Shown in pieces: positions 1-27,173 of a DNA stretch of 64,000 bases (position 1 is the first letter of the stretch; each line of letters begins with the position of its first letter). The notes beneath the pieces were generated by a model. That model was given only the letters and a program-made list of their open reading frames with translations, was not told the origin of the DNA and searched no databases. The stretch comes from Micromonospora echinospora (GTDB taxonomy: Bacteria > Actinomycetota > Actinomycetes > Mycobacteriales > Micromonosporaceae), in NCBI RefSeq assembly GCF_014203425.1, contig NZ_JACHJC010000001.1, positions 2,542,001 to 2,606,000 of the forward strand, in the 5' to 3' direction. The translations under genes and the position numbers were made by a program.

Positions 1-320
1 GCGGCCAGCACTGCGGGCCAGTCCGGGGCGGCCCGGTCGACGCCGCCGAGCACGCCGTGGATGTCGTCGTGCTCCGCGCAGAGCTTCGCCACCGCCTCGG
101 CCAGGCTGCCCTCGGCCCGCAGCTCCTCGAAGAGGCCGTCCTCCTCGGTGGCGGTGTGCGGCATCAGCAGCGCCAGCAGCGCGTCCAGCGCCACCAGAGC
201 GTCCGGGCCGCCGGCCCGCACCGCGCCGCGCAGCAGGCCGGCCGCGTTCGCGATCGCCTCGTGCTCGGCCGAGAGCCGGCCGATCAGCGGGAACTCCCGA
301 CAGCCGCAGTAGTTGCACAC
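1..320 (-). CDS. Hemerythrin-domain protein (3' end outside window)
   Basis: The N-terminal ~106 residues of a small hemerythrin-like protein. It begins GTG with MCNYCGCREFPLIG, a Cys-rich start seen in actinobacterial hemerythrin proteins, then shows the helix histidine/acid motifs AEHEAI, MPHTATEEDGLF and CAEHDDIHGV expected to bind a di-iron centre. Such proteins bind O2 or NO or sense redox. The start is supported by CAGGAGA five bases upstream. It lies downstream of, and on the same strand as, a second hemerythrin/DUF2249 gene, 129 bp away, so the two probably act together. The C-terminus is cut by the window edge. Family call is firm; ligand is inference. Confidence 0.85.
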   Translation of the reverse strand, partial: MCNYCGCREFPLIGRLSAEHEAIANAAGLLRGAVRAGGPDALVALDALLALLMPHTATEEDGLFEELRAEGSLAEAVAKLCAEHDDIHGVLGGVDRAAPDWPAVLA

Positions 321-449: not shown

Positions 450-1256
450 TCAGACCGTCAACGGCCGGCGGGAGAGCCGGATCTGCCACACGTCCGGCCC
501 GTCCTGCAGCCACTCGCTGGTCATGCCGTCGCCGTAGCGGGCTGCGACCTCGGCCAGCAGCGGGCGGGGTGCGTGCGGGGCGACCAGCACCAGCGCTCCA
601 CCGGCCGGCAGCGCCTCCAGCGCCGCCAGCACCCGCGCGTGGCGCTGGTCGTGCGGGAGCTGCCGGACGTCCAGCCGGGGATCGATGGTCAGGGTCGGTG
701 CCGCCGCGTCGGCCGGTGCCCGGTCACCACCGCAGCCGCAGCCACCCCCGCCGCAACCGCCGCCTTTCGAGCCTTCCGAGGAGCCGAGCAGATCGTGCAT
801 CCCCTCCAGCAACTTCGCCAGCGAGACGTCGGCCGCGTCCACCAGCAGCGGGACGACCAGGTCGTTCTCCTTGGCCAGGTGGACGGCGAGGAGCGCGGCG
901 AGGGCGCGCGCGGTGCCGGCGAGGCGTACCGGCCGGTTGCCGGTCTCCAGCTCGGCGACCAGGCCGGTGATTGCCTGGTGCTCGTCGAGCATGCCCCGGA
1001 CCAGCAGCTCACCCTCGGCCCGCTCACCGGCGGCGGCGTAGAGGGAGTCCTCCTCGGCGTGCGCGTGCGGCAGCAGTTCGTCGCGGAGCCATCGGAGCAG
1101 TTCGTCGCGGTGCCGGAGCGCCCCGGCGGCGTCACCCTGGTCGGCCGCGGTCAGCAGGTTTCCGACGTGCCGGTCGAGGTCGGCGGCGAGCTGGGCGTGG
1201 TGCCGGACGACGGCCTGCGCGGCCTCGTGGTCGGCCGGGGAGCGTGAGGCGGACAT
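450..1256 (-). CDS. Hemerythrin plus DUF2249 two-domain protein
   Basis: 268 aa. Residues ~1-150 form a hemerythrin-like helical bundle (RHHAQLAADL, LPHAHAEEDSLY, DEHQAITGLV, HLAKENDLVV). A Gly/Cys-rich linker around residues 165-180 carries four cysteines, and the C-terminal ~75 residues resemble DUF2249 (SirA/TusA-like fold, DVRQLPHDQRHARVLAALE). DUF2249 and hemerythrin proteins accompany nitrite/NO reduction genes in many actinobacteria, matching the divergent operon here. The ATG is preceded by GGAGGG; the longer upstream reading frame would run into the divergent promoter and was rejected. Role in NO or O2 handling is inferred. Confidence 0.82.
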   Translation of the reverse strand: MSASRSPADHEAAQAVVRHHAQLAADLDRHVGNLLTAADQGDAAGALRHRDELLRWLRDELLPHAHAEEDSLYAAAGERAEGELLVRGMLDEHQAITGLVAELETGNRPVRLAGTARALAALLAVHLAKENDLVVPLLVDAADVSLAKLLEGMHDLLGSSEGSKGGGCGGGGCGCGGDRAPADAAAPTLTIDPRLDVRQLPHDQRHARVLAALEALPAGGALVLVAPHAPRPLLAEVAARYGDGMTSEWLQDGPDVWQIRLSRRPLTV

Positions 1257-1293
1257 GGAGCCCTCCAGGGTTTTGCGGGTGAACGACGTTGTA

Positions 1294-1307
1294 ACGTTAT
1301 CTAACGT
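1294..1307. promoter_or_regulatory. Inverted repeat overlapping start of HTH regulator gene
   Basis: ACGTTA-TC-TAACGT, perfect 6-bp arms, in the 49-bp gap between the divergent DUF2249 and regulator genes. It touches the GTG at 1306, so if that gene is leaderless the dyad covers the -10/+1 region. Likely operator for the adjacent regulator (autoregulation); inferred. Confidence 0.55.
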
Positions 1308-2013
1308 GGAAACCCCGAGAACAGGGCCGGCCGGCGAGACCATCGACCCGCAACGCCACCGGGCCCTCGGCACCGCCAGCCGGGCCTCGATCCTGGAGTT
1401 CGTGCGCGCCGCCGGCGTCGGCATGACGATCGCCGAGGTGGGGGAACGGACGGGCCTGCACCTGTCCACCGCCCGCGCCCACCTCGACCGCCTGGTCGAC
1501 GCCGGACTGTTGGTCAAGGCGCGGGCCAGTGGGGGCCAGCCCGGACGGCCGGCGTGGCGCTACCGGGTGGCCGTCGCGGAGGCCCCGGCCCCCGCGCCCT
1601 ACCGGGCACTCGCCGCCGCCCTGCTCGACCACCTGTCGCGGCGTGGCCACGGAGACGTCCGGGCGGAGGCCACCCGCGCCGGCCAGGCCTGGGGACGCCA
1701 CCTCGCCGCCGCCACCCCGCCCGGCGGGGAGCCCGTCGATACGCTGCTCGACGTCCTGCGCGGGCTGGGCTTCAATCCCCGCCGACACCGGACGGCCGAC
1801 GGGGCGACCGAGATCCACCTGCACACCTGCCCCTTCCTGGAACTGGTCAACCGCAACCCCGACGCGATCTGCGCCCTGCACGTCGGCGTGGTCCGCGGCA
1901 CGCTCGAACACGCCGGTGCCTCACCGGCCGGCGCCGTGCTCGAACCCTTCGGCGCACCCGACGCCTGCGTGGTGCGGCTGGCCCTGCCGAATATCACCGA
2001 AGAGCCGGCATGA
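1306..2013 (+). CDS. HTH transcriptional regulator with C-terminal cysteines (SufR-like layout)
   Basis: 235 aa. N-terminal winged helix (ASRASILEFVRAAGVGMTIA, then TGLHLSTARAHLDRLVDAGL as the recognition region) resembling the ArsR/DeoR-type HTH of SufR-like regulators. The C-terminal half has Cys in HTCPFLE, AICALHVG and DACVV, a C-x13-C-x31-C pattern that could hold an Fe-S cluster and so sense NO or redox. GTG 1306 was chosen because the upstream ATG (1255) would overlap the divergent gene and its promoter. First gene of an operon with the NnrS-like and copper-protein genes, overlapping the next ORF by ATGA. Fe-S sensing is inference. Confidence 0.72.
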   Translation: METPRTGPAGETIDPQRHRALGTASRASILEFVRAAGVGMTIAEVGERTGLHLSTARAHLDRLVDAGLLVKARASGGQPGRPAWRYRVAVAEAPAPAPYRALAAALLDHLSRRGHGDVRAEATRAGQAWGRHLAAATPPGGEPVDTLLDVLRGLGFNPRRHRTADGATEIHLHTCPFLELVNRNPDAICALHVGVVRGTLEHAGASPAGAVLEPFGAPDACVVRLALPNITEEPA

Positions 2014-3137
2014 ACCCACGGCCGGTCGCCGTACGATGGCGTCTCCCCGTCCTCGCCGCGGGCGGCTTCGCCCTGGTGAGCGGTCTCTACGCCGCCCTGC
2101 TGCTGCTCGGCCTGCCGATGCCCGCGCCTCACGTCCCACTGGAGCAGGTGCACGGCCCGCTGATGGTGCTGGGCTTCGTCGGCACCCTGGTGGCGCTGGA
2201 ACGCGCGGTGGCCCTCGGCACCCGGTGGGCCCTGCTCGCACCCGCCTGCTCCGGCGCCGGGGCGGTGCTGCTGGTGCTGACCGGGCCGAGCCTGCCCGGC
2301 CGGCTGCTGCTCATGCTCGCCTCGGTGCTGCTGCTGCTGATCTACCAGCGGCTGTGGTGGCGGCAGCCCGGCCCGGCGCTGCTGGCCCAGGTCACCGGCG
2401 CGCTGAGCTGGTACGCCGCTACCCTGCTCTGGCTCGCCGGCCTCAGCGTGCCGGAGATCGTGCCCTGGCTGGCCACCTTCGTGGTGGCCACCATCGCCGG
2501 GGAGCGTCTGGAACTCGCTCACCTCACGCTGCCCCGGCACGGCGTCGGCTGGTTCCTCGCCGCCCTCGGCATGCTGACCGCCGGCGCCACCGCCGCCGCG
2601 CTCTGGCCGACCGTCGGGGCGTACCTCTTCGGGGTCGGCCTGCTCGCAACGGTGGCCTGGCTGGTGGTCTGCGACGTCGCCCGCCGCACGGTGCGCGCCG
2701 TCGGCCTCCCCCGCTACGTCGCGGTCGGCCTGCTCACCGGGTACGCCTGGCTGGCGCTGGCCGGCCTGCTGTGGGCCGGCGCCGGGCCGGTCACCGGCGG
2801 CTCCCGTTACGACGCCACCCTGCACCTGGTCTTCCTGGGCTTCACCATGTCGATGATCTTCGCGCACGCTCCAGTGATCCTGCCGGCTGTGCTTCGCCGC
2901 CCACTGCCCTACGGACCGTGGCTGTACGCCCCGCTCGCCCTGCTGCACACCACCCTGACGATCCGGGTCCTGGTCGGCGACGTGCTCGGCGTGCCGGCCG
3001 GGTGGCGCTGGGGCGGCGTCGGCAACGTCCTGGCGGTGCTCGGTTTCGTCGGCGGAGTGGTGGCCGCGTTGGTCCGCGCCGCCCGGCGGCGGACCCGGAC
3101 GGCGGTCGTCCCGCCGGTCGTGCCGGCGGTGCGGTGA
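2010..3137 (+). CDS. NnrS-like polytopic membrane protein
   Basis: 375 aa, almost entirely hydrophobic with roughly 10-12 membrane helices. Histidines occur within or near helices (VHGPLMVLGF, HLVFLGFTMSMIFAHAPVIL), which recall NnrS, a haem/copper membrane protein that counters nitrosative stress. Starts inside the stop of the upstream regulator gene (ATGA) and ends one base into the next start (TGATG), so the three genes are translationally coupled. The NnrS assignment rests on topology, His pattern and context rather than a diagnostic motif. Confidence 0.62.
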   Translation: MNPRPVAVRWRLPVLAAGGFALVSGLYAALLLLGLPMPAPHVPLEQVHGPLMVLGFVGTLVALERAVALGTRWALLAPACSGAGAVLLVLTGPSLPGRLLLMLASVLLLLIYQRLWWRQPGPALLAQVTGALSWYAATLLWLAGLSVPEIVPWLATFVVATIAGERLELAHLTLPRHGVGWFLAALGMLTAGATAAALWPTVGAYLFGVGLLATVAWLVVCDVARRTVRAVGLPRYVAVGLLTGYAWLALAGLLWAGAGPVTGGSRYDATLHLVFLGFTMSMIFAHAPVILPAVLRRPLPYGPWLYAPLALLHTTLTIRVLVGDVLGVPAGWRWGGVGNVLAVLGFVGGVVAALVRAARRRTRTAVVPPVVPAVR

Positions 3138-4459
3138 TGGCCGGCACCCGCGGCGACTCCGCCCCGACCGCGCCCTCGGGCCCGAGGCCCGGGCCGACCG
3201 TCTCGGCAGTCGCGTCGGCCGGTCCCGCCGCCCCGGCCCCCGGCCCGGTGACCGCTCCGGCCGTGGCGGCGGGCCTTCGGCGGGTCGGCTGGCACCGCCG
3301 GGTCGCTGCGCTGCCGTTGGCCTACCTGGCCGGGCTGGTCGTGCTCGCCTTCGTCCATCCGTTCCTCCCCGCGTGGCGCTGGACGGCCATCCACCTGCTG
3401 CTGCTCGGTGCGGTCAGCAACGCCGTCGTGGTGTGGAGCGCCCACTTCGCCGCCGCCGTGCTGCGTGCCCCCGCCCCGGACCGCCGCCGCGCCGAGGCGG
3501 CCCGGCTGGCCGCGCTCAACGTGGGCGTGCTGGCGGTCCTGACCGGCGGCACGGCCGACCGCCCCTGGCTGGGCGTGGCGGGCGCTACGCTGGTCTTCGT
3601 CGCGGTGACCGCCCACCTCGTCGCGCTCACCCGCCGGCTGCGCCGCGCCCTGCCGGCCCGGTTCTCCGTCACGGTCCGCTACTACCTGGCGGCGACCGTG
3701 GCCCTGCTCGCCGGCGTGCCGGTCGGCGCCGGGATGCTGGTGATCGACGACCCGCTGCGCCCCCGGCTGCTGCTGTTCCACGCCCACGTGAACCTGCTCG
3801 GTTGGGTGACGCTGACCGTCCTCGGGACGCTGCTGACACTCTGGCCCACCGTGCTGCGTACCCGGATGGCCGACGGTGCGGTCCGCGCCGCCACCGTCGC
3901 GCTGCCGGTGGCGACGACCGGACTGGTCCTGCTGGGCGTCGGCCTGCTCGCCTGGTGGCGGCTCGTCGCCGCGGCCGGGCTGAGCCTGTTCGCCCTCGGC
4001 GCGCTGATCGCCCTGCGCCCCGCGCTGGCCGTCGCGCGCACCCGCCCCCCGTACGCGTTCGCGTCCTGGTCGCTCGCCGCGGCCGGCGGCTGGCTGATGG
4101 TCGCCCTCGCTGTGGACGCCGCGACGCTGCTGCCCGCTGCGGACCCGGCCGGCGCGGCCGACCGCTTCGGTGCGGTGCTGCTCCCGCTGCTGGTCGGCTT
4201 CGTCGCCCAGGTCCTCGTCGGAGCCCTGACCCACCTGCTGCCCGTGGTGCTCGGCGGCGGACCCGCGCCGGTGCGCCGCCGCGCCGCCCTGCTGGAGCGG
4301 CACGGCCCGCAGCGCGTCGCGATGACCAACGCCGCCCTGCTGGTCCTCGTCCTGCCCACCCCGCCGTTCGTCCGCATCACCACCTCACTGCTGATCCTCG
4401 CCGCGCTGGTGCAGTTCCTCGTGCCGGCCGTGCGGGTCCTGCTCACCGCCCGGAGGTAA
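3137..4459 (+). CDS. Multi-helix membrane protein of copper/nitrite cluster
   Basis: 440 aa. A Pro/Ala-rich cytoplasmic start (~45 residues) is followed by about 10-12 hydrophobic segments. Helix motifs such as LLLFHAHVNLLGWVTLTVLG and ALTHLLPVVL place histidines in the membrane, as in haem-copper oxidase-like or NnrS-like proteins. It is sandwiched between an NnrS-like gene and a NirK-like copper protein gene, so it may pass electrons or metal to the latter. I do not recognise a defined family with confidence; the function is left open. Confidence 0.6.
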   Translation: MAGTRGDSAPTAPSGPRPGPTVSAVASAGPAAPAPGPVTAPAVAAGLRRVGWHRRVAALPLAYLAGLVVLAFVHPFLPAWRWTAIHLLLLGAVSNAVVVWSAHFAAAVLRAPAPDRRRAEAARLAALNVGVLAVLTGGTADRPWLGVAGATLVFVAVTAHLVALTRRLRRALPARFSVTVRYYLAATVALLAGVPVGAGMLVIDDPLRPRLLLFHAHVNLLGWVTLTVLGTLLTLWPTVLRTRMADGAVRAATVALPVATTGLVLLGVGLLAWWRLVAAAGLSLFALGALIALRPALAVARTRPPYAFASWSLAAAGGWLMVALAVDAATLLPAADPAGAADRFGAVLLPLLVGFVAQVLVGALTHLLPVVLGGGPAPVRRRAALLERHGPQRVAMTNAALLVLVLPTPPFVRITTSLLILAALVQFLVPAVRVLLTARR

Positions 4460-24244: not shown

Positions 24245-24286
24245 GGCGCCGCTCAGAGCTCCATGACGGTGGCTCTGGAATATTCA

Positions 24287-24315
24287 TTGCCAACCGTGGA
24301 CGCCGCCCCTACCGT
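24287..24315 (+). promoter_or_regulatory. Sigma-70-type promoter ahead of short ORF and tRNA array
   Basis: TTGCCA (24287-24292), 17-bp spacer, TACCGT (24310-24315): a good match to actinobacterial housekeeping promoters (TTGACN-N17-TANNNT). Drives the small ORF at 24350; whether read-through reaches the tRNA array past the terminator at 24499 is unknown. Confidence 0.55.
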
Positions 24316-24349
24316 GAATTGAACACCGAACCAACCCGAGGAGCTCCCC

Positions 24350-24481
24350 GTGTTGCAGTACGCCTCCACCGAAACCACGCGGTTCATGCCGCGCGGCGGT
24401 CTCGTGCTGTCCTCGATCGGGCGAGCCCACGACCTGTGCGCGAGCGAGCAGAACTGGAAGCCGGGGTGGCGGCGCGTATAG
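24350..24481 (+). CDS. Possible 43-aa protein upstream of tRNA array
   Basis: GTG start with GAGGAG seven bases upstream, 43 codons (MLQYASTETTRFMPRGGLVL ... QNWKPGWRRV), stop TAG, then a rho-independent terminator 17 bp later and a promoter 34 bp before it. The complete transcription/translation frame argues for a real small gene although nothing in the sequence is recognisable. It is the last element before tRNA-Trp and may belong to the same acquired segment. Confidence 0.45.
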   Translation: MLQYASTETTRFMPRGGLVLSSIGRAHDLCASEQNWKPGWRRV

Positions 24482-24498
24482 CGCCAGCGCAAGCTGCG

Positions 24499-24534
24499 AA
24501 GCCGCCCACCCCGCCAGGGACAGGGCGGCTTTTT
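24499..24534 (+). terminator. Rho-independent terminator before tRNA array
   Basis: AAGCCGCC ... GGCGGCTT followed by TTT: an 8-bp stem plus a short U-run, 17 bp after the small ORF and 24 bp before tRNA-Trp. Confidence 0.72.
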
Positions 24535-24557
24535 CGTTACCCGCACACAAACTCCAC

Positions 24558-24630
24558 AGGGGCGTAGCTCAACTGGTAGAGCATCGGTCTCCAAAGCCGA
24601 AGGTTGCAGGTTCGAGTCCTGTCGCCCCTG
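24558..24630 (+). tRNA. tRNA-Trp(CCA)
   Basis: Acceptor AGGGGCG/CGCCCCT fully paired, anticodon loop CTCCAAA, T-arm GCAGG TTCGAGT CCTGT, discriminator G. No encoded CCA. First tRNA of the array; looks intact. Confidence 0.93.
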
Positions 24631-24697
24631 CTTCTCGTCCCGGCTGCGGCCGGCGGCGTCGCAGATTCTCAACTCCACAGTGGATGGCACAGCAATA

Positions 24698-24729
24698 CCC
24701 CGGCCGGCGCCTGCGCGTGCCGGCCGGGG
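24698..24729 (+). terminator. Strong GC hairpin between tRNA-Trp and tRNA-Pro
   Basis: CCCCGGCCGGC ... GCCGGCCGGGG, an 11-bp perfect stem (13 with a G-T and a C-G pair), no U-tract. It could end the tRNA-Trp transcript or act as a processing structure within the array. Confidence 0.5.
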
Positions 24730-24738
24730 GCATTACCT

Positions 24739-24814
24739 CCGGGACGAGGGAGACGGCTGACCCGCTCGCTTTGGGAGCGAGAGAGACGGGGTTCGACACC
24801 CCGGTCCCGGACCA
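24739..24814 (+). tRNA. tRNA-Pro(TGG)
   Basis: Acceptor CCGGGAC/GTCCCGG paired, anticodon stem CTCGC/GCGAG, loop TTTGGGA (anticodon TGG), T-arm CGGGG TTCGACA CCCCG, encoded ACCA. Intact; one of three array members with CCA. One base separates it from the next tRNA. Confidence 0.9.
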
Positions 24815-24815
24815 T

Positions 24816-24888
24816 GGGGTTGTAGCTCAGCTGGTAGAGCGTCGGCACGGCACGCCGAAGGCCGAGGGTTCGAGTCCCTTCTACTCCA
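24816..24888 (+). tRNA. tRNA-Ala(GGC) with C33
   Basis: Acceptor GGGGTTG/CTACTCC with one T-T mismatch and the G3-U70 alanine identity pair present. Anticodon loop ACGGCAC: anticodon GGC, but position 33 is C instead of the near-universal U. No CCA. Possibly impaired in decoding. Confidence 0.82.
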
Positions 24889-24897
24889 CGTACCGAT

Positions 24898-24966
24898 GCC
24901 CTCCTGGCGTACCCGGCAGCGTACGGGGGTGGATTCCCGAGGACTCCATTCAAGTCAGGGAGGGCG
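24898..24966 (+). tRNA. Degraded tRNA-like unit
   Basis: Paired termini GCCCTCC/GGAGGGC, a D-arm-like segment (TGGCGTACCCGGCAGCG) and a central hairpin CGGG/CCCG, but the T-arm is only GACT/AGTC with a loop lacking TTCGA. Spacing fits a tRNA in the array; anticodon not assignable. Confidence 0.35.
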
Positions 24967-25014
24967 CGTAGGCGGATTCCTGGGCGAGCGGCCCGCGATC
25001 CCCGCCAGATCCAT

Positions 25015-25088
25015 GGGCCGTTGGAGCAAGCTGGCAGCTCACCTGGTTCTCAGCCAGGAGGTTACGGGTTCGAGCCCCGTACGGCCTA
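25015..25088 (+). tRNA. tRNA-Glu(CTC)
   Basis: Acceptor GGGCCGT/ACGGCCT (one G-U), D-stem GAGC/GCTC, anticodon stem CCTGG/CCAGG with loop TTCTCAG, T-arm ACGGG TTCGAGC CCCGT, discriminator A. No CCA. Structurally intact. Confidence 0.87.
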
Positions 25089-25103
25089 CGCACAAAATGC
25101 CAT

Positions 25104-25176
25104 GCGGTCGTGGTGAACTCGGCGGACACGTCGGTCTTCCAAACCGAAGAAGCGGGGTCGGTGCCCGCCGACCGCT
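25104..25176 (+). tRNA. tRNA-Gly(TCC), unusual T-loop
   Basis: Acceptor GCGGTCG/CGACCGC perfect, anticodon stem TCGGT/ACCGA, loop CTTCCAA (TCC), discriminator T. The T-stem GCGGG/CCCGC is good but the loop is GTCGGTG instead of TTCRANY, so tertiary structure may be weak. No CCA. Confidence 0.78.
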
Positions 25177-25250
25177 CAGCCATTCCCGGGTGCTCTTTCG
25201 GATCGGGAGGACGCAGCTTCAACTCGTCGCCACCGCTCTCTGCGGATCAC

Positions 25251-25325
25251 GCCTCGGTAGCCCAACTGGTAGGAGGCAGCGCCTTCAAACCGCGCGCAGT
25301 GCGGGTTCGAATCCCGCTCGGGGCA
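25251..25325 (+). tRNA. tRNA with CAA anticodon but no long variable arm
   Basis: Acceptor GCCTCGG/TCGGGGC (two G-U), D-arm GCC/GGC with an enlarged 12-nt loop, anticodon stem GCGCC/CGCGC with a C-C mismatch next to the loop, loop TTCAAAC, T-arm GCGGG TTCGAAT CCCGC. CAA would read Leu UUG, yet the variable loop is only GCAGT; leucine tRNAs normally have a long arm, so amino acid identity is doubtful. Confidence 0.7.
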
Positions 25326-25331
25326 CTCACG

Positions 25332-25358
25332 CCGCTGGTTCGATCCCCGTCGTCCGCT
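25332..25358 (+). tRNA. tRNA 3' fragment
   Basis: GCTGGTTCGATCCCCGT followed by CGTCCGC looks like a T-arm and acceptor 3' strand with no 5' part. Remnant within the array; it abuts the ribosome site of the HNH fragment. Confidence 0.3.
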
Positions 25359-25395
25359 CGCACGGATCACCGGCCACGACAGAAAGGAGGGCCCG

Positions 25396-25512
25396 CTGGA
25401 CGCCGTTCTCGTCCTCAACGCCGGCCTGGGACCGCTGCACCGGGTCCCGATCAAACACGCGATCCGGATGCTCATGCGCCAGGTCGCCGAGATCCACGAA
25501 GCCGAGCCGGAT
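25396..25512 (+). pseudogene. HNH endonuclease, N-terminal fragment
   Basis: A perfect Shine-Dalgarno AGAAAGGAGG lies five bases before a CTG codon that opens DAVLVLNAGLGPLHRVPIKH and AIRMLMRQVAEIHEAEPD. This is the N-terminal region of actinobacterial HNH endonucleases (VLVLNA..PL..V....A..L). The Cys/His metal-binding and HNH catalytic parts are absent: the frame runs straight into a tRNA-like unit and tRNA-Met. Either truncated by tRNA insertion or a relic of a homing-type nuclease carried by the array. Confidence 0.65.
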
Positions 25513-25555
25513 CGGCAGCTCGCAGGCAGCCGGTTCGAGTCCGGACGTTGGCTCT
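25504..25555 (+). tRNA. Truncated tRNA-like unit lacking anticodon arm
   Basis: Termini GAGCCGG/TTGGCTC pair (two G-U) and CCGG TTCGAGT CCGG forms a T-arm, but only 19 nt separate the 5' acceptor strand from the T-arm, so D and anticodon arms have collapsed. Overlaps the end of the HNH fragment frame. Confidence 0.35.
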
Positions 25556-25560
25556 TACAT

Positions 25561-25636
25561 GCCGACGTAGCTCAGGTGGTAGAGCGGCCGGCTCATAACC
25601 GGCAGGTCCCCGGTTCGACACCGGGCGTCGGCACCA
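25561..25636 (+). tRNA. tRNA-Met(CAT)
   Basis: Acceptor GCCGACG/CGTCGGC perfect, anticodon stem GCCGG/CCGGC, loop CTCATAA, T-arm CCCGG TTCGACA CCGGG, encoded ACCA. Fully paired 1-72 means elongator type or tRNA-Ile2 (lysidine) rather than initiator. One base precedes tRNA-Leu. Confidence 0.92.
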
Positions 25637-25637
25637 C

Positions 25638-25721
25638 GCGCTCGTGGTGGAACTCAGGTAGACACGCCGGCCTCAGAAGCCGGTGCCGAGAGGCGTGGGG
25701 GTTCGACTCCCCCCGAGCGCA
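25638..25721 (+). tRNA. tRNA-Leu(CAG)
   Basis: Acceptor GCGCTCG/CGAGCGC perfect, anticodon stem CCGGC/GCCGG with loop CTCAGAA, long variable arm TGCCGAGAGGCGT, T-arm GGGGG TTCGACT CCCCC, discriminator A. Intact class II tRNA; no CCA. Confidence 0.93.
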
Positions 25722-25735
25722 CGTAGCAAGGCCAT

Positions 25736-25808
25736 GGGGTCGTAGCTCAGTTGGTAGAGCGCTGCTTTCGCAATGCAGAGGCCGGCGGTTCGACTCCGCC
25801 CGATTCCA
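25736..25808 (+). tRNA. tRNA-Ala(CGC)
   Basis: Acceptor GGGGTCG/CGATTCC with the G3-U70 identity pair, anticodon stem CTGCT/TGCAG (one T-T mismatch), loop TTCGCAA, T-arm GGCGG TTCGACT CCGCC. No CCA. Confidence 0.88.
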
Positions 25809-25904
25809 CGTCCCTCGCCCCGTCTCCGGCTTTACGGGGGAACCACGAGGACCAGGTGCCCGCTCGCGAGGACTCGCGACGACGCCGTCACATCAGCCGG
25901 CCAA

Positions 25905-25959
25905 GCCCTGTCGGTCCAGCGGAGTGGACGCCCGCCTGTCGAGCGGGAGACCCGGCAAC
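25905..25959 (+). tRNA. tRNA-Asp(GTC), 3' truncated
   Basis: GCCCTGT, D-arm GTCC AGCGGAGT GGAC, anticodon stem CCCGC/GCGGG with loop CTGTCGA (GTC) match actinobacterial tRNA-Asp. The T-arm and 3' acceptor strand are missing: the next tRNA starts six bases later. Non-functional. The preceding 25809-25904 spacer shows no clear element. Confidence 0.6.
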
Positions 25960-25964
25960 ACCAT

Positions 25965-26037
25965 GCCCCCGTGGCTCAGGGGATAGAGCACTGGATTACG
26001 GATCCAGGGGTCGCGCGTTCGAATCGCGCCGGGGGCA
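25965..26037 (+). tRNA. tRNA-Arg(ACG)
   Basis: Acceptor GCCCCCG/CGGGGGC perfect, anticodon stem CTGGA/TCCAG, loop TTACGGA, T-arm GCGCG TTCGAAT CGCGC, discriminator A. A34 would be edited to inosine. No CCA; intact. Confidence 0.93.
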
Positions 26038-26042
26038 CGTAT

Positions 26043-26115
26043 TGGGATGTGGCGCAGTCGGTAGCGCGCCGGTCTGGGGGATTGGAGGTCGCCGGTTCGA
26101 ACCCGGCAATCCCAA
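26043..26115 (+). tRNA. tRNA-Pro(GGG)
   Basis: Acceptor TGGGATG/AATCCCA (G7-A66 mismatch), anticodon stem CCGGT/ATTGG (two G-U), loop CTGGGGG (GGG), T-arm GCCGG TTCGAAC CCGGC. No CCA. Slightly weakened but likely recognisable. Confidence 0.85.
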
Positions 26116-26125
26116 CTCCTGGTGA

Positions 26126-26293
26126 GGCCACCCGACAGGTGACGGGTGCCGCCTCGAAAGCGGACAGGGCCGCAAGGCCTCGCGCATCGAAGCCGAGATC
26201 GAGAAGTGTGAGGTTGTGTGCGCGAACGACCACCGACGTCGGACTGCGCGCACCCAGAGATGGTTCGCCTCGGCGAACCTCAAGCGCCGCTAG
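26126..26293 (+). pseudogene. HNH endonuclease, C-terminal fragment
   Basis: The frame ends KASRIEAEIEKCEVVCANDHRRRTARTQRW ... LKRR-stop in two quoted halves: KASRIEAEIEKCEV and VCANDHRRRTARTQRW. This is the C-terminal end of a small HNH nuclease family in which KCEVVCANCHRRRT is conserved; here the metal-binding second Cys is Asp. No start codon or upstream HNH residues survive. Its TAG stop (26291-26293) is formed by T8-A9-G10 of the downstream tRNA-Lys, so the tRNA overlaps the coding end. Different family from the 25396 fragment. Confidence 0.65.
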
Positions 26294-26356
26294 CTCATGG
26301 GGTAGAGCTGCCGACTCTTAATCGGTAAGTGCAGGGTTCGAGTCCCTGGCGGCGTA
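26284..26356 (+). tRNA. tRNA-Lys(CTT)
   Basis: Acceptor GCGCCGC/GCGGCGT (G1-U72), D-stem GCTC/GAGC, anticodon stem GCCGA/TCGGT, loop CTCTTAA, T-arm CAGGG TTCGAGT CCCTG, discriminator A. No CCA. Overlaps the end of the HNH reading frame. Confidence 0.9.
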
Positions 26357-26363
26357 CCGACTT

Positions 26364-26436
26364 GCCCCGCTGGCTCAGCGGACAGAGCACCCGCCTCCTA
26401 AGCGGCAGGTTGCTCGTTCGATCCCAGCTCGCGGCA
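26364..26436 (+). tRNA. tRNA-Arg(CCT), degenerate stems
   Basis: All arms in register with anticodon loop CTCCTAA (CCT), but mismatches occur in the acceptor (C4-C69, C7-T66), the anticodon stem top (C-C) and the T-stem GCTCG/CCAGC (C-C). T-loop TTCGATC is normal. Probably decaying. Confidence 0.78.
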
Positions 26437-26440
26437 CAGA

Positions 26441-26514
26441 CGCGCGTTCGGTCATGGGTAGGCCCCTAGCCTTTCAAGCTGGTGAAGCGGGTTCGAGTCC
26501 CGCACGCGCGACCA
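26441..26514 (+). tRNA. tRNA-Glu(TTC)
   Basis: Acceptor CGCGCGT/ACGCGCG perfect, D-stem GGTC/GGCC (one weak pair), anticodon stem CTAGC/GCTGG, loop CTTTCAA (TTC), T-arm GCGGG TTCGAGT CCCGC, encoded ACCA. Confidence 0.88.
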
Positions 26515-26536
26515 TTCCGGCAGTCGCCGGAGCAAT

Positions 26537-26609
26537 GGAGGGGTCTCGGCGGCCACGGGAGCCCGTCGGAACCGGTGTCGAGGGCGGAAGCCGAACCCCA
26601 CCCCTTCCG
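26537..26609 (+). tRNA. Degraded tRNA-Ser(GGA)-like unit
   Basis: GGAGGGG with 3' CCCCTTCC, a serine-like D-region (TCTCGGCGGCCACGGGAGCC) and a loop TCGGAAC carrying GGA, followed by a long variable-arm-like stretch. The anticodon stem pairs poorly and no TTCGA T-loop exists. Confidence 0.3.
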
Positions 26610-26614
26610 CGTAT

Positions 26615-26686
26615 GCCCGCGTAGCTCAACGGGAGAGCACCTGGTCCACACCCAGGGGGTCGGAGGTTCGACACCTTCCGCGGGCA
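26615..26686 (+). tRNA. tRNA-Val(CAC) with C33
   Basis: Acceptor GCCCGCG/CGCGGGC perfect, anticodon stem CCTGG/CCAGG, loop TCCACAC (CAC) with C instead of U at position 33, T-arm GGAGG TTCGACA CCTTC, discriminator A. No CCA. Same anticodon as the attachment-site tRNA remnant at 7102 but a different sequence. Confidence 0.85.
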
Positions 26687-26706
26687 CTGGCCTTCGGGCC
26701 GAGGTT

Positions 26707-26777
26707 GTGGCTGTAGCTCAATGGCAGAGCGCCGGGTTGTGGCCCCGGAGGTGCCGGGTCAGTACCGGCCAGTCACC
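26707..26777 (+). tRNA. tRNA-His(GTG), atypical
   Basis: Acceptor GTGGCTG/CAGTCAC (one G-U), anticodon stem CCGGG/CCCGG, loop TTGTGGC. The T-stem GCCGG/CCGGC is intact but its loop is GTCAGTA, not TTCRANY, and position -1 is T rather than the G that histidyl-tRNA synthetase requires (C73 is present; G-1 could be added post-transcriptionally). Confidence 0.8.
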
Positions 26778-26780
26778 CCA

Positions 26781-26865
26781 GTGGGTGCGCCACCGATGGA
26801 GAGGTGGGGCGGCCTGTAAAGCCGTTGCGTTCAACGCTCAAGGGGTTTGATTCCCCTCACCCGCA
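26781..26865 (+). tRNA. tRNA-Tyr(GTA)
   Basis: Acceptor GTGGGTG/CACCCGC (one G-U), anticodon stem GCGGC/GCCGT, loop CTGTAAA, long variable arm TTGCGTTCAACGCTC, T-arm AGGGG TTTGATT CCCCT. Class II, intact, no CCA (ACC then T). Confidence 0.9.
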
Positions 26866-26868
26866 CCT

Positions 26869-26932
26869 GCCCACGTAGCTCAGCGGATAGAGCACCAGCG
26901 GGTTGTCGGAGGTTCGAGTCCTTCCGTGGGCG
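26869..26932 (+). tRNA. tRNA-like gene lacking an anticodon arm
   Basis: 64 nt. Acceptor GCCCACG/CGTGGGC perfect, D-arm GCTC AGCGGATA GAGC intact, T-arm GGAGG TTCGAGT CCTTC good. Between A26 and the T-stem only 13 nt remain instead of ~22, and they cannot form a stem with a 7-nt loop. A 9-nt internal deletion of an otherwise well-preserved tRNA. Confidence 0.65.
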
Positions 26933-26936
26933 CCTT

Positions 26937-27007
26937 GGTCGTGTGCCCGAGTGGTCAGGGAGCGGTCTGCAAAACCGCGTACGCCGGTTCGAATCCGGTC
27001 ACGGCCT
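26937..27007 (+). tRNA. tRNA-Cys(GCA)
   Basis: Acceptor GGTCGTG/CACGGCC (one U-G), anticodon stem GCGGT/ACCGC, loop CTGCAAA, T-arm GCCGG TTCGAAT CCGGT, discriminator T (U73, cysteine identity). No CCA. Last tRNA of the array. Confidence 0.92.
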
Positions 27008-27173
27008 CGGCTGCCATCCACCGCGGACTGCAAGCCGACTCACCCACCCGGACCCGGACCTGGCGGTTCCGGGCAGTGTCGCTGGCGGCGAGGGCGGTCG
27101 GCGAGGAATGATCGGGGTACCCGCGGACTGCCCGCAGCAGCCCACGGCGCAGCAGAAGGGCGGGTCGACGCCG

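What the first reader, a model, noticed from the sequence alone, without database searches (positions are those of the whole stretch)
24558..27007. Compact tRNA gene array of mobile-element type
Twenty-two tRNA or tRNA-like units, 16 different anticodons legible in the better ones, lie head-to-tail in 2.45 kb. Most lack the encoded CCA, several have damaged stems and the order mixes isotypes without the usual operon logic. A chromosome of this kind already has dispersed housekeeping tRNAs. Such arrays are known from actinobacterial plasmids, integrative elements and phages, where they may support translation after host tRNA cleavage or codon mismatch. Here the array sits between secreted-protein debris and a CO dehydrogenase locus with no other plasmid or phage gene left.
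Basis: partly seen in the sequence, partly recalled or inferred. Interest (0 to 1): 0.88.

Follow-up and report, generated by a model that had tools for sequence, protein, structure and literature searches.

The report
tRNA array behind all-amino-acid leader peptide
A soil actinobacterium carries a spare, partly decayed set of tRNA genes whose control region encodes a tiny peptide containing every amino acid, which looks like a sensor that would switch the spare tRNAs on when protein synthesis stalls for lack of any tRNA.

Summary
The array is real: 18 tRNA genes by ARAGORN on one strand in 2.45 kb, remnants of about nine more, and the 5' part of an HNH endonuclease gene. All 18 anticodons recur among 51 dispersed tRNAs of this Micromonospora genome, so it is not a housekeeping locus. 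It is a deletion derivative of a known kind, the actinobacterial 'tRNA array unit', also found on phage contigs of the family and on Arthrobacter plasmids. The new part lies just upstream of the given coordinates: a conserved leader with a promoter-like site, ribosome-binding site, 43-codon ORF and intrinsic terminator 25 nt before the first tRNA. A covariance model of it hit 148 of 300 family genomes and, among 394 class genomes, only three Micromonospora. Of 40 hits fetched, 39 precede tRNAs and one rtcB, an RNA-repair ligase; the same genome's rtcB has its own leader. The window's leader peptide contains all 20 amino acids (0 of 5000 random protein windows do). Across 32 dissimilar leaders, amino-acid variety tracks tRNA variety (rho 0.73). 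I propose attenuation that polls every aminoacyl-tRNA and makes replacement tRNAs when any runs short. Architecture is shown; sensing is inferred; there are no expression data.

The parts
24262..24557 (+). conserved leader region of the array cassette (about 296 bp)
   Evidence: Against 32 other arrays: 21 align from about this left boundary at 84-90% identity, 6 over 263-310 bp (72-88%), 5 only over the terminator part or less. DNA search: 79 of 160 Micromonospora genomes at E <= 1e-8.
24287..24315 (+). promoter-like site TTGCCA - 17 nt - TACCGT
   Evidence: TTGNNN-16..19-TANNNT upstream of the leader ORF in 82 of 90 leaders, against 1.1% of shuffled upstreams
24340..24343 (+). ribosome-binding site GGAG of the leader ORF
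   Evidence: read directly; GGAG also in the other 23 chromosomal-array leaders
24350..24481 (+). leader ORF, GTG start, 43 codons + TAG; peptide contains all 20 amino acids
   Evidence: pN/pS 0.66 in frame against 1.01 in both other frames; no NCBIfam or Pfam match
24461..24473 (+). proposed antiterminator strand (last codons of the leader ORF; approximate)
   Evidence: complementary to the 5' arm of the terminator: p = 0.005 against shuffles for the window, 52 of 90 leaders at p <= 0.05; no covariation above shuffles in a fixed register
24498..24534 (+). intrinsic terminator hairpin and T-run; hairpin ends 25 nt before the first tRNA
   Evidence: covariation above all 500 shuffles on alignment A5
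24558..24631 (+). tRNA-Trp(cca), first array unit in the 32 arrays
24739..24814 (+). tRNA-Pro(tgg), CCA encoded
24816..24889 (+). tRNA-Ala(ggc)
24898..24965 (+). tRNA-Phe(gaa) remnant
   Evidence: 83% to a relative's unit, E 3e-17
25015..25089 (+). tRNA-Glu(ctc)
25104..25177 (+). tRNA-Gly(tcc)
25197..25220 (+). tRNA-Gln(ttg) remnant
   Evidence: E 1e-7
25251..25326 (+). tRNA-Leu(caa)
25333..25359 (+). tRNA-Gly(gcc) 3' remnant
   Evidence: E 7e-9
25384..25517 (+). 5' fragment of an HNH endonuclease gene; the HNH domain is missing (approximate ends)
   Evidence: a longer relative, L134:9798-10310, has the Pfam HNH domain at residues 106-147
25519..25554 (+). tRNA-Thr(tgt) 3' remnant
   Evidence: E 5e-11
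25561..25636 (+). tRNA-Met(cat), CCA encoded
25638..25722 (+). tRNA-Leu(cag)
25736..25809 (+). tRNA-Ala(cgc)
25905..25950 (+). tRNA-Asp(gtc) 5' remnant
   Evidence: E 4e-10
25965..26038 (+). tRNA-Arg(acg)
26043..26116 (+). tRNA-Pro(ggg)
26121..26180 (+). tRNA-Ser(cga) 5' remnant
   Evidence: 95% to a relative's unit, E 3e-25
26284..26358 (+). tRNA-Lys(ctt)
26364..26437 (+). tRNA-Arg(cct), the most damaged called unit
   Evidence: 5 of 7 acceptor pairs
26441..26514 (+). tRNA-Glu(ttc), CCA encoded
26521..26533 (+). tRNA-Asn(gtt) 3' remnant (weak)
   Evidence: E 2e-4
26537..26610 (+). tRNA-Ser(gga) remnant
   Evidence: E 1e-14
26615..26687 (+). tRNA-Val(cac)
26707..26780 (+). tRNA-His(gtg), CCA encoded
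26781..26867 (+). tRNA-Tyr(gta)
26869..26934 (+). tRNA-Arg(ccg) with a short internal deletion
26937..27008 (+). tRNA-Cys(gca), last unit in 22 of the 32 arrays
27009..27035 (+). trailer shared with other arrays; probable right edge of the cassette
   Evidence: 17 of 23 other array ends align at least 13 nt beyond Cys, some to about here; the sister-species match of the right flank starts at 27077

Best explanation
The locus is the chromosomal, partly decayed descendant of a phage- and plasmid-type tRNA array, and its transcription is probably controlled by ribosome-mediated attenuation. RNA polymerase starts just after 24287-24315, transcribes a 43-codon leader ORF whose peptide uses all 20 amino acids, and meets a terminator 25 nt before the first tRNA. 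When every aminoacyl-tRNA is available, a ribosome reads to the leader's stop codon and covers the last codons; those codons would otherwise pair with the 5' arm of the terminator, so the terminator forms and the array stays off. When a tRNA runs short (for example after cleavage by a defence or toxin nuclease), the ribosome stalls earlier, the last codons sequester the terminator's 5' arm, and polymerase reads into the array, supplying replacement tRNAs. The same leader family precedes rtcB, an RNA ligase that rejoins cut RNAs (recalled), so replacement and repair would belong to one tRNA-damage response. Shown: array, redundancy, relatives on mobile elements, leader architecture and its tie to arrays and rtcB, completeness of the peptide, terminator covariation. 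Inferred: promoter use, translation of the ORF in the cell, the antiterminator, the trigger, and that this decayed copy still works.
For: Leader specificity: model R1 hits 148 of 300 family genomes (80 Micromonospora, 68 of other genera; 18 of 44 genera) and, of 394 class genomes, only three, all Micromonospora. 40 hits fetched (37 of other genera, three of which repeat training loci): 39 followed by tRNAs, 1 by rtcB. rtcB tie: 43 of 64 listed rtcB loci have a leader 129-654 nt upstream, 12 of the other 21 one at E < 1e-4 in a targeted search; the own genome has leader + tRNA-Glu + rtcB. Peptide: all 20 residues in 43, against 0 of 5000 protein windows (mean 15.0); 24 chromosomal-array leaders average 19.0, 6 phage-type leaders 19.2. 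Of 32 dissimilar representatives, all 9 with at least 16 tRNA isotypes have 18-20 residues and the 17 with ten or fewer have 9-18 (p 2e-5); rho 0.73. In 262 kb of two phage contigs the only ribosome-binding-site-preceded 36-52-aa ORFs (of 175) with at least 19 residues are the two array leaders. Coding: pN/pS 0.66 against 1.01. Promoter-like site 82 of 90. Terminator covariation: 0 of 500 shuffles as high. Nascent-RNA folding: terminator 5' arm sequestered 0.81 with the ribosome mid-ORF, 0.36 at the stop, 66 array leaders. 13 of 18 array tRNAs keep all examined stem pairs although acceptor and anticodon stems differ from host tRNAs at 33-43% of positions. One phage contig carries T4-RnlA-like ligase, PNKP-type and RlaP genes about 4.5-7 kb downstream of its array on the same strand.
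Against: No expression data. Antiterminator pairs show no covariation above shuffles in a fixed register, and only 52 of 90 leaders pass p <= 0.05 for complementarity. At equilibrium the terminator dominates even with the leader strand free (mean 0.76 in 66 array leaders; 0.97 in the window), and only 21 of 66 change by more than 0.3 between mid-ORF and stop. In the nascent-RNA calculation the fall at the stop is partly built in, since the leader strand is removed there; 25 of 66 fall by more than 0.5. Without their last 8 residues 70 array leaders average 16.2 distinct amino acids, and W and K of the window peptide first occur at residues 36 and 37, so late that a stall there would mask the antiterminator strand. 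rtcB-type leaders are not enriched (14.1 against 14.9), and 9 of 64 rtcB loci gave no convincing leader. With a composition-matched null the excess over 29 array representatives is modest (472 against 449, sd 7.6; 4 of 3000 simulations reach it), and several small-array leaders fall below expectation. Most leaders are related, so the counts are not independent. The window array is decayed and may be inert.
Confidence: 0.62

Rival explanations
1. Decaying relic: the array arrived with a phage or plasmid, is no longer useful, and the leader persists only because too little time has passed.
For: Truncated HNH gene and nine remnant units. Arrays fetched from the genus range from 37 down to 3 tRNAs. 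None of the flanking window proteins scanned is a mobile-element gene.
Against: 13 of 18 tRNAs keep every examined stem pair although acceptor and anticodon stems differ by 33-43% from host tRNAs. Leader ORF, promoter-like site and terminator are intact, and the leader is 84-90% identical in 21 other arrays, including ones of 5-6 tRNAs.
Confidence: 0.25
2. The leader responds to general ribosome stalling (for example ribosome-targeting antibiotics made by actinobacteria) and the amino-acid variety is secondary.
For: Antibiotic-sensing leader peptides are well known (recalled; titles and abstract starts). The rtcB branch uses the same leader without extra amino-acid variety. One paper links Rtc repair to survival of ribosome-targeting antibiotics (PMC12606134, search listing with start of abstract only).
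Against: Does not explain why leaders of complete arrays in dissimilar lineages hold 18-20 amino acids while leaders of small arrays hold fewer.
Confidence: 0.2
3. Codon-bias supply: the array adds tRNAs for codons that the element uses more than the host, with constant expression.
For: A classic explanation of phage tRNAs, discussed in PMC10264068.
Against: All 18 anticodons already exist in the host, and a conserved terminator before the first tRNA argues against constant expression. Codon usage itself was not compared here.
Confidence: 0.08
4. Housekeeping tRNA operon of this chromosome.
For: None found.
Against: 51 dispersed tRNAs cover every array anticodon; seven fetched loci of relatives that share one flank contain no tRNA there.
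Confidence: 0.01

Closest known systems
tRNA array units of mycobacterial chromosomes, phages and plasmids (PMC5966550: abstract, Results part 1 of 2 and Discussion read; PMC12803027: abstract, Introduction and section 3.1 read)
   Same: Dense array, anticodons largely redundant with the chromosome, embedded HNH gene common, carried by phages and plasmids, suggested antidefence role.
   Different: Different gene order (Trp first, Cys usually last) and only 18 called tRNAs. In the parts read neither paper describes a leader ORF or terminator. Model R1 found nothing in the mycobacterial, Tsukamurella and Arthrobacter plasmid pieces searched.
Ribosome-mediated attenuators of amino-acid operons (trp, his, ilv type; recalled)
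   Same: Promoter, translated leader peptide, alternative pairing of its last codons with a terminator just before the operon.
   Different: Those leaders are rich in one or a few amino acids. Here one peptide carries all 20, and the operon is tRNA genes rather than enzymes.
RtcR-regulated rtcBA RNA-repair operon (PMC7790460: title and start of abstract in a search listing, plus term counts)
   Same: tRNA damage as the trigger and RtcB as an output.
   Different: There a protein activator (RtcR, CARF domain) senses the signal; here a leader-attenuator precedes rtcB. The terms leader, tRNA genes, tRNA cluster and Actinobacteria do not occur in its main text.
Phage tRNAs that evade anticodon nucleases (PMC10264068: abstract and Results and discussion read)
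   Same: Replacement tRNAs as counter-defence.
   Different: That paper rests on anticodon-loop changes. In the window array loop positions differ less (14 of 126) than acceptor and anticodon stems (33-43%), although 9 of 18 units carry a change at 32, 33, 37 or 38.

Membership tests
tRNA array unit | at least 20 tRNA genes in one region (definition quoted in PMC5966550) | tested here: not met
   18 by ARAGORN; about 27 with remnants. Relatives of the same array carry up to 37.
tRNA array unit | at least two tRNA genes per kb | tested here: met
   18 in 2.45 kb
tRNA array unit | anticodons redundant with dispersed genes | tested here: met
   18 of 18
tRNA array unit | embedded HNH endonuclease gene (common, not universal) | tested here: inconclusive
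   only the 5' fragment remains
tRNA array unit | relatives on mobile elements | tested here: met
   phage contigs with structural genes, one with integrase; Arthrobacter-type plasmids
ribosome-mediated transcription attenuator | leader ORF with ribosome-binding site under coding constraint | tested here: met
   (24 chromosomal-array leaders). Of 40 family hits 39 list an ORF with a ribosome-binding site, and 38 were used
ribosome-mediated transcription attenuator | intrinsic terminator between leader ORF and first gene | tested here: met
   90 of 90 leaders examined; covariation
ribosome-mediated transcription attenuator | mutually exclusive antiterminator | tested here: inconclusive
   supported; not
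ribosome-mediated transcription attenuator | promoter only upstream of the leader | tested here: inconclusive
   promoter-like site in 82 of 90; transcription starts not measured
ribosome-mediated transcription attenuator | read-through changes with translation of the leader | not testable with these tools
   needs an experiment
T-box or other known Rfam leader | match to a curated RNA family | tested here: not met
   no gathering match in the leader; at E <= 10 only a chance-level snoRNA match on the other strand
housekeeping tRNA operon | sole genomic copies of its anticodons | tested here: not met

The most novel reading that the evidence does not exclude
A 'checklist' leader: one short ORF that needs all 20 aminoacyl-tRNAs acts as a universal tRNA-shortage sensor and switches on a complete replacement set of tRNAs, with a sister leader on the RNA-repair ligase RtcB. 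It occurs in Micromonosporaceae chromosomes and their phages, and in similar form before Arthrobacter plasmid arrays (20 of 20 amino acids in 50 and 52 residues).
Probability: 0.55. Interest if true: 0.95.

Novelty: new variant of a known kind. Interest (0 to 1): 0.87.

Why it matters
The purpose of tRNA arrays on phages, plasmids and chromosomes is an open question. A conserved leader that ties arrays to rtcB, and whose peptide lists all or nearly all amino acids when the array is complete, gives a testable answer: arrays are an inducible reserve used when the tRNA pool is attacked. It would be an attenuator that senses tRNA shortage in general rather than one amino acid, and would explain how an element can carry 20 or more extra tRNAs without constant cost. 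It also offers a simple criterion (short, ribosome-binding-site-preceded ORF with 19-20 amino acids) to look for more such sensors.

Tried and rejected
Rejected: housekeeping operon (redundancy). Known riboswitch or T-box. A defined insertion site: left and right flanks are not neighbours in the relatives fetched, so no clean empty site. An anticodon-loop 'armour' signature for this array: loops differ less than stems. Same leader in mycobacterial arrays: L182 and L183 have 93-codon ORFs upstream with all 20 amino acids, but no terminator was found and the length makes 20 easier; the ORFs listed upstream of the first tRNA in phages Dandelion and PegLeg reach only 17 and 18. Streptomyces phage Daubenski was fetched but not analysed further. 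Arthrobacter leaders have the same layout but R1 does not hit them, so homology is not claimed. Equilibrium folding of the switch did not discriminate well. Fixed-register covariation of the antiterminator failed. In alignment A4 the terminator arm was partly fixed by my own search pattern (5 of 57 leaders without the pattern were dropped, and 38 of the remaining 52 were aligned), so terminator covariation was counted on A5 instead (52 R1 hits; fitted to the model, which leans towards it).

Literature (open-licence library only). One search, any two of tRNA array / leader peptide / attenuation: 397 papers; none of the 20 listed holds 'tRNA array', and papers with all three would rank first. 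One search, three of tRNA gene cluster / attenuator / leader peptide / phage: none of 20 listed of 56 holds 'tRNA gene cluster'., RtcB + leader peptide + attenuation: one paper, on an efflux system; one paper, without 'leader peptide'., tRNA array + Micromonospora: one general review. Nothing on this combination was seen.

Full report
WHAT IS THERE. ARAGORN tRNA genes, all on + and all within 24558-27008 of the 64 kb window; Rfam. The window lies at 2542001-2606000 of a 7.13-Mb genome held as one contig. The genus is Micromonospora: several 'same genus' handles have contigs of the same length as named Micromonospora contigs. Of 68 tRNA matches in the genome, 51 lie outside the array, and they cover all 18 anticodons of the array.

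DESCENT. The frame at 25351-25560 holds the start of an HNH endonuclease. Its relatives are annotated HNH endonucleases on three Arthrobacter-type plasmids, 69 loci in genomes and 3 IMG/VR contigs. Only 12 of the 69 genome loci lie in arrays of five or more tRNAs, but the three best matches (84-91%) do. Where an array is present the order is broadly constant: Trp, Pro, Ala, Phe, Glu, Gly, Gln, Leu, Thr, Gly, HNH, Gln, Leu, Thr, Thr, Met, Leu, Ala, Asp, Ser, Ile, Arg, Pro, Pro, Ser, Lys, Arg, Lys, Met, Val, Glu, Asn, Ser, Val, His, Tyr, Arg, Cys, with members missing. The window array follows this order with internal deletions, and the nine remnants sit where the order predicts. Two of the IMG/VR contigs were read in pieces. 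G176 matches M. costi; G175 matches a genome of another genus of the family. From selected larger ORFs (54 of 103 and 63 of 183 called), both give terminase, portal, major head and tape-measure matches (lists capped at 25 families), and G176 has an integrase. In G175, T4-RnlA-like ligase (over Pfam's cut-off, under NCBIfam's), PNKP-type and RlaP genes lie about 4.5-7 kb downstream of the array on the same strand.

CHROMOSOMAL CASSETTES. The 32 arrays hold 3 to 37 tRNAs. All start with Trp, but they were chosen by matches that often cover Trp; 22 end with Cys. Compared with the window, 21 of 32 share about 300 bp upstream of Trp at 84-90% identity, and 17 of 23 align at least 13 nt beyond Cys. 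Their flanks mostly differ: at a threshold of 500 bp several groups of 2-7 share a neighbourhood and the window shares none. Of 145 flanking ORFs listed for 15 such loci, 125 were scanned. The families shown (25 of 55 PHROGs, 25 of 110 Pfam) are mainly ordinary chromosomal ones, with some transposases, one integrase, three 'major tail protein' matches and two matches to phrog_5823, a family also on both phage contigs. What moves the cassette is unknown. Window proteins scanned include a glucose/sorbosone dehydrogenase-like, a gluconolactonase-like, a LysR and molybdoenzyme proteins, and no mobile-element gene.

THE LEADER. The shared 296 bp hold, in order, a promoter-like site (82 of 90 leaders against 1.1% of shuffles), a ribosome-binding site, a short ORF and an intrinsic terminator whose hairpin ends about 20-25 nt before Trp in the chromosomal-array family. 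Among 24 chromosomal-array leaders all ORF lengths stay in frame, and pN/pS is 0.66 in frame against 1.01 in both other frames. Phage-type arrays have a divergent version, as do Rugosimonospora and Plantactinospora. Arthrobacter plasmid arrays have an unannotated ORF and terminator in the same place; one such ORF is 86% identical between two plasmids.

SPECIFICITY. A covariance model (R1, 38 leaders) hits 148 of 300 genomes of the family: 80 Micromonospora, among them the training genomes, and 68 of other genera; 18 of 44 genera. Of 394 genomes of the class only three were hit, all Micromonospora (stricter filters, so weak matches can be lost). I fetched 40 hits, not all: 37 mostly better-scoring ones of other genera and three of the genus. 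ARAGORN finds tRNAs downstream in 39 and rtcB follows in the remaining one. L285, L290 and L319 repeat training loci L125, L118 and L062; the other 37 were not used to build the model.

RTCB. A DNA search with the window leader hits 79 of 160 Micromonospora genomes, including some without an array-long match (for example G008, G012, G048). Twenty such places were fetched. Behind the leader lie a few tRNAs and/or, in many, a gene of about 399 codons; seven read as protein are RtcB-like in sequence, and one was scanned (Pfam E 1e-127). In the window's own genome rtcB (4429634-4430746, minus strand) is preceded by tRNA-Glu(ctc) and a leader with a 38-residue peptide; R1 finds it without having been trained on it. 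So one genome holds two copies of the switch: one before spare tRNAs, one before an RNA-repair ligase.

THE PEPTIDE. The window's 43-residue peptide contains all 20 amino acids. None of 5000 random 43-residue windows of the window's proteins does (mean 15.0). Means: 24 chromosomal-array leaders 19.0; 6 phage-type leaders 19.2 (classed by similarity; two correspond to the contigs read here); 36 array leaders of other loci 16.2; 24 rtcB-type leaders 14.1, a group that includes a few leaders followed by short tRNA runs. Among 32 representatives below 50% identity, the number of distinct amino acids follows the number of tRNA isotypes in the array (Spearman 0.73, p 2e-6). All nine with at least 16 isotypes have 18-20, and the 17 with ten or fewer have 9-18. 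Some array counts there are lower bounds because only about 3.5 kb was fetched, and relatedness is not corrected for. With residues drawn from the pooled leader composition the excess is smaller but present (4 of 3000 simulations reach it). In two phage contigs, 175 ribosome-binding-site-preceded ORFs of 36-52 codons were listed, and the only ones with 19 or 20 amino acids are the two array leaders; in the window none of 23 others has 19.

THE SWITCH. The terminator shows covariation above all 500 shuffles and above slid versions (alignment fitted to the model). The last codons of the leader ORF are complementary to its 5' arm in 52 of 90 leaders at p <= 0.05 (median z -2.0), usually starting about 20 nt before the ORF's end. 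L305, L319 and L320 show matching changes in both strands, but a fixed-register test shows no covariation above shuffles. Equilibrium folding favours the terminator in most states. A calculation on the nascent RNA before the terminator's 3' arm is made gives 0.81 sequestration with the ribosome mid-ORF and 0.36 at the stop in 66 array leaders, a fall that is partly built in. The antiterminator is therefore plausible, not proven.

THE tRNAS. Against host tRNAs with the same anticodon, acceptor and anticodon stems differ at 33-43% of positions, T stems at 25%, T loops at 21% and anticodon loops at 11%, yet 13 of 18 units keep all examined stem pairs. That points to selection for folding over a long divergence. 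Nine of 18 units differ at loop positions 32, 33, 37 or 38; this fits, but does not single out, evasion of anticodon nucleases (idea from PMC10264068).

VERDICT. The array itself is a shrunken member of a known kind. The leader with its all-amino-acid peptide, its association with arrays and rtcB, and its presence on phages were not found described in the searches. The most likely function is an inducible tRNA reserve within a tRNA-damage response; sensing and induction remain to be measured.

Noticed in passing
L233 (rtcB of G179), oriented 880-3207: This rtcB frame is 775 codons long, with an intein-like insert splitting a conserved cysteine region, behind the same leader.
   Followed up: no
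G000:C1:2832988-2834001 (L241): A second rtcB-family open frame in the window's genome, matched in two separate stretches; R1 found no leader in the 3 kb around it.
   Followed up: partly
L173:2777-5494 (G175 phage contig): RlaP, PNKP-type and T4-RnlA-like RNA-repair genes in a row, some 4.5 kb downstream of the phage tRNA array on the same strand.
   Followed up: partly
L157, L158, L164 and relatives: A short form Trp-Pro-Glu-Gly - about 1.3 kb - Arg shared by several species; the gap probably holds rtcB, as in L222 and L224.
   Followed up: partly
L132, L133, L136, L138, L139, L140, L154 flanks: These arrays share one chromosomal neighbourhood, but in L136 and L139 part of it lies on the other side of the array, as if the cassette entered the same region differently.
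   Followed up: no
L182 and L183, several hundred nt before the first tRNA: Mycobacterial plasmid arrays also have an unannotated 93-codon frame with all 20 amino acids upstream, without a visible terminator.
   Followed up: partly
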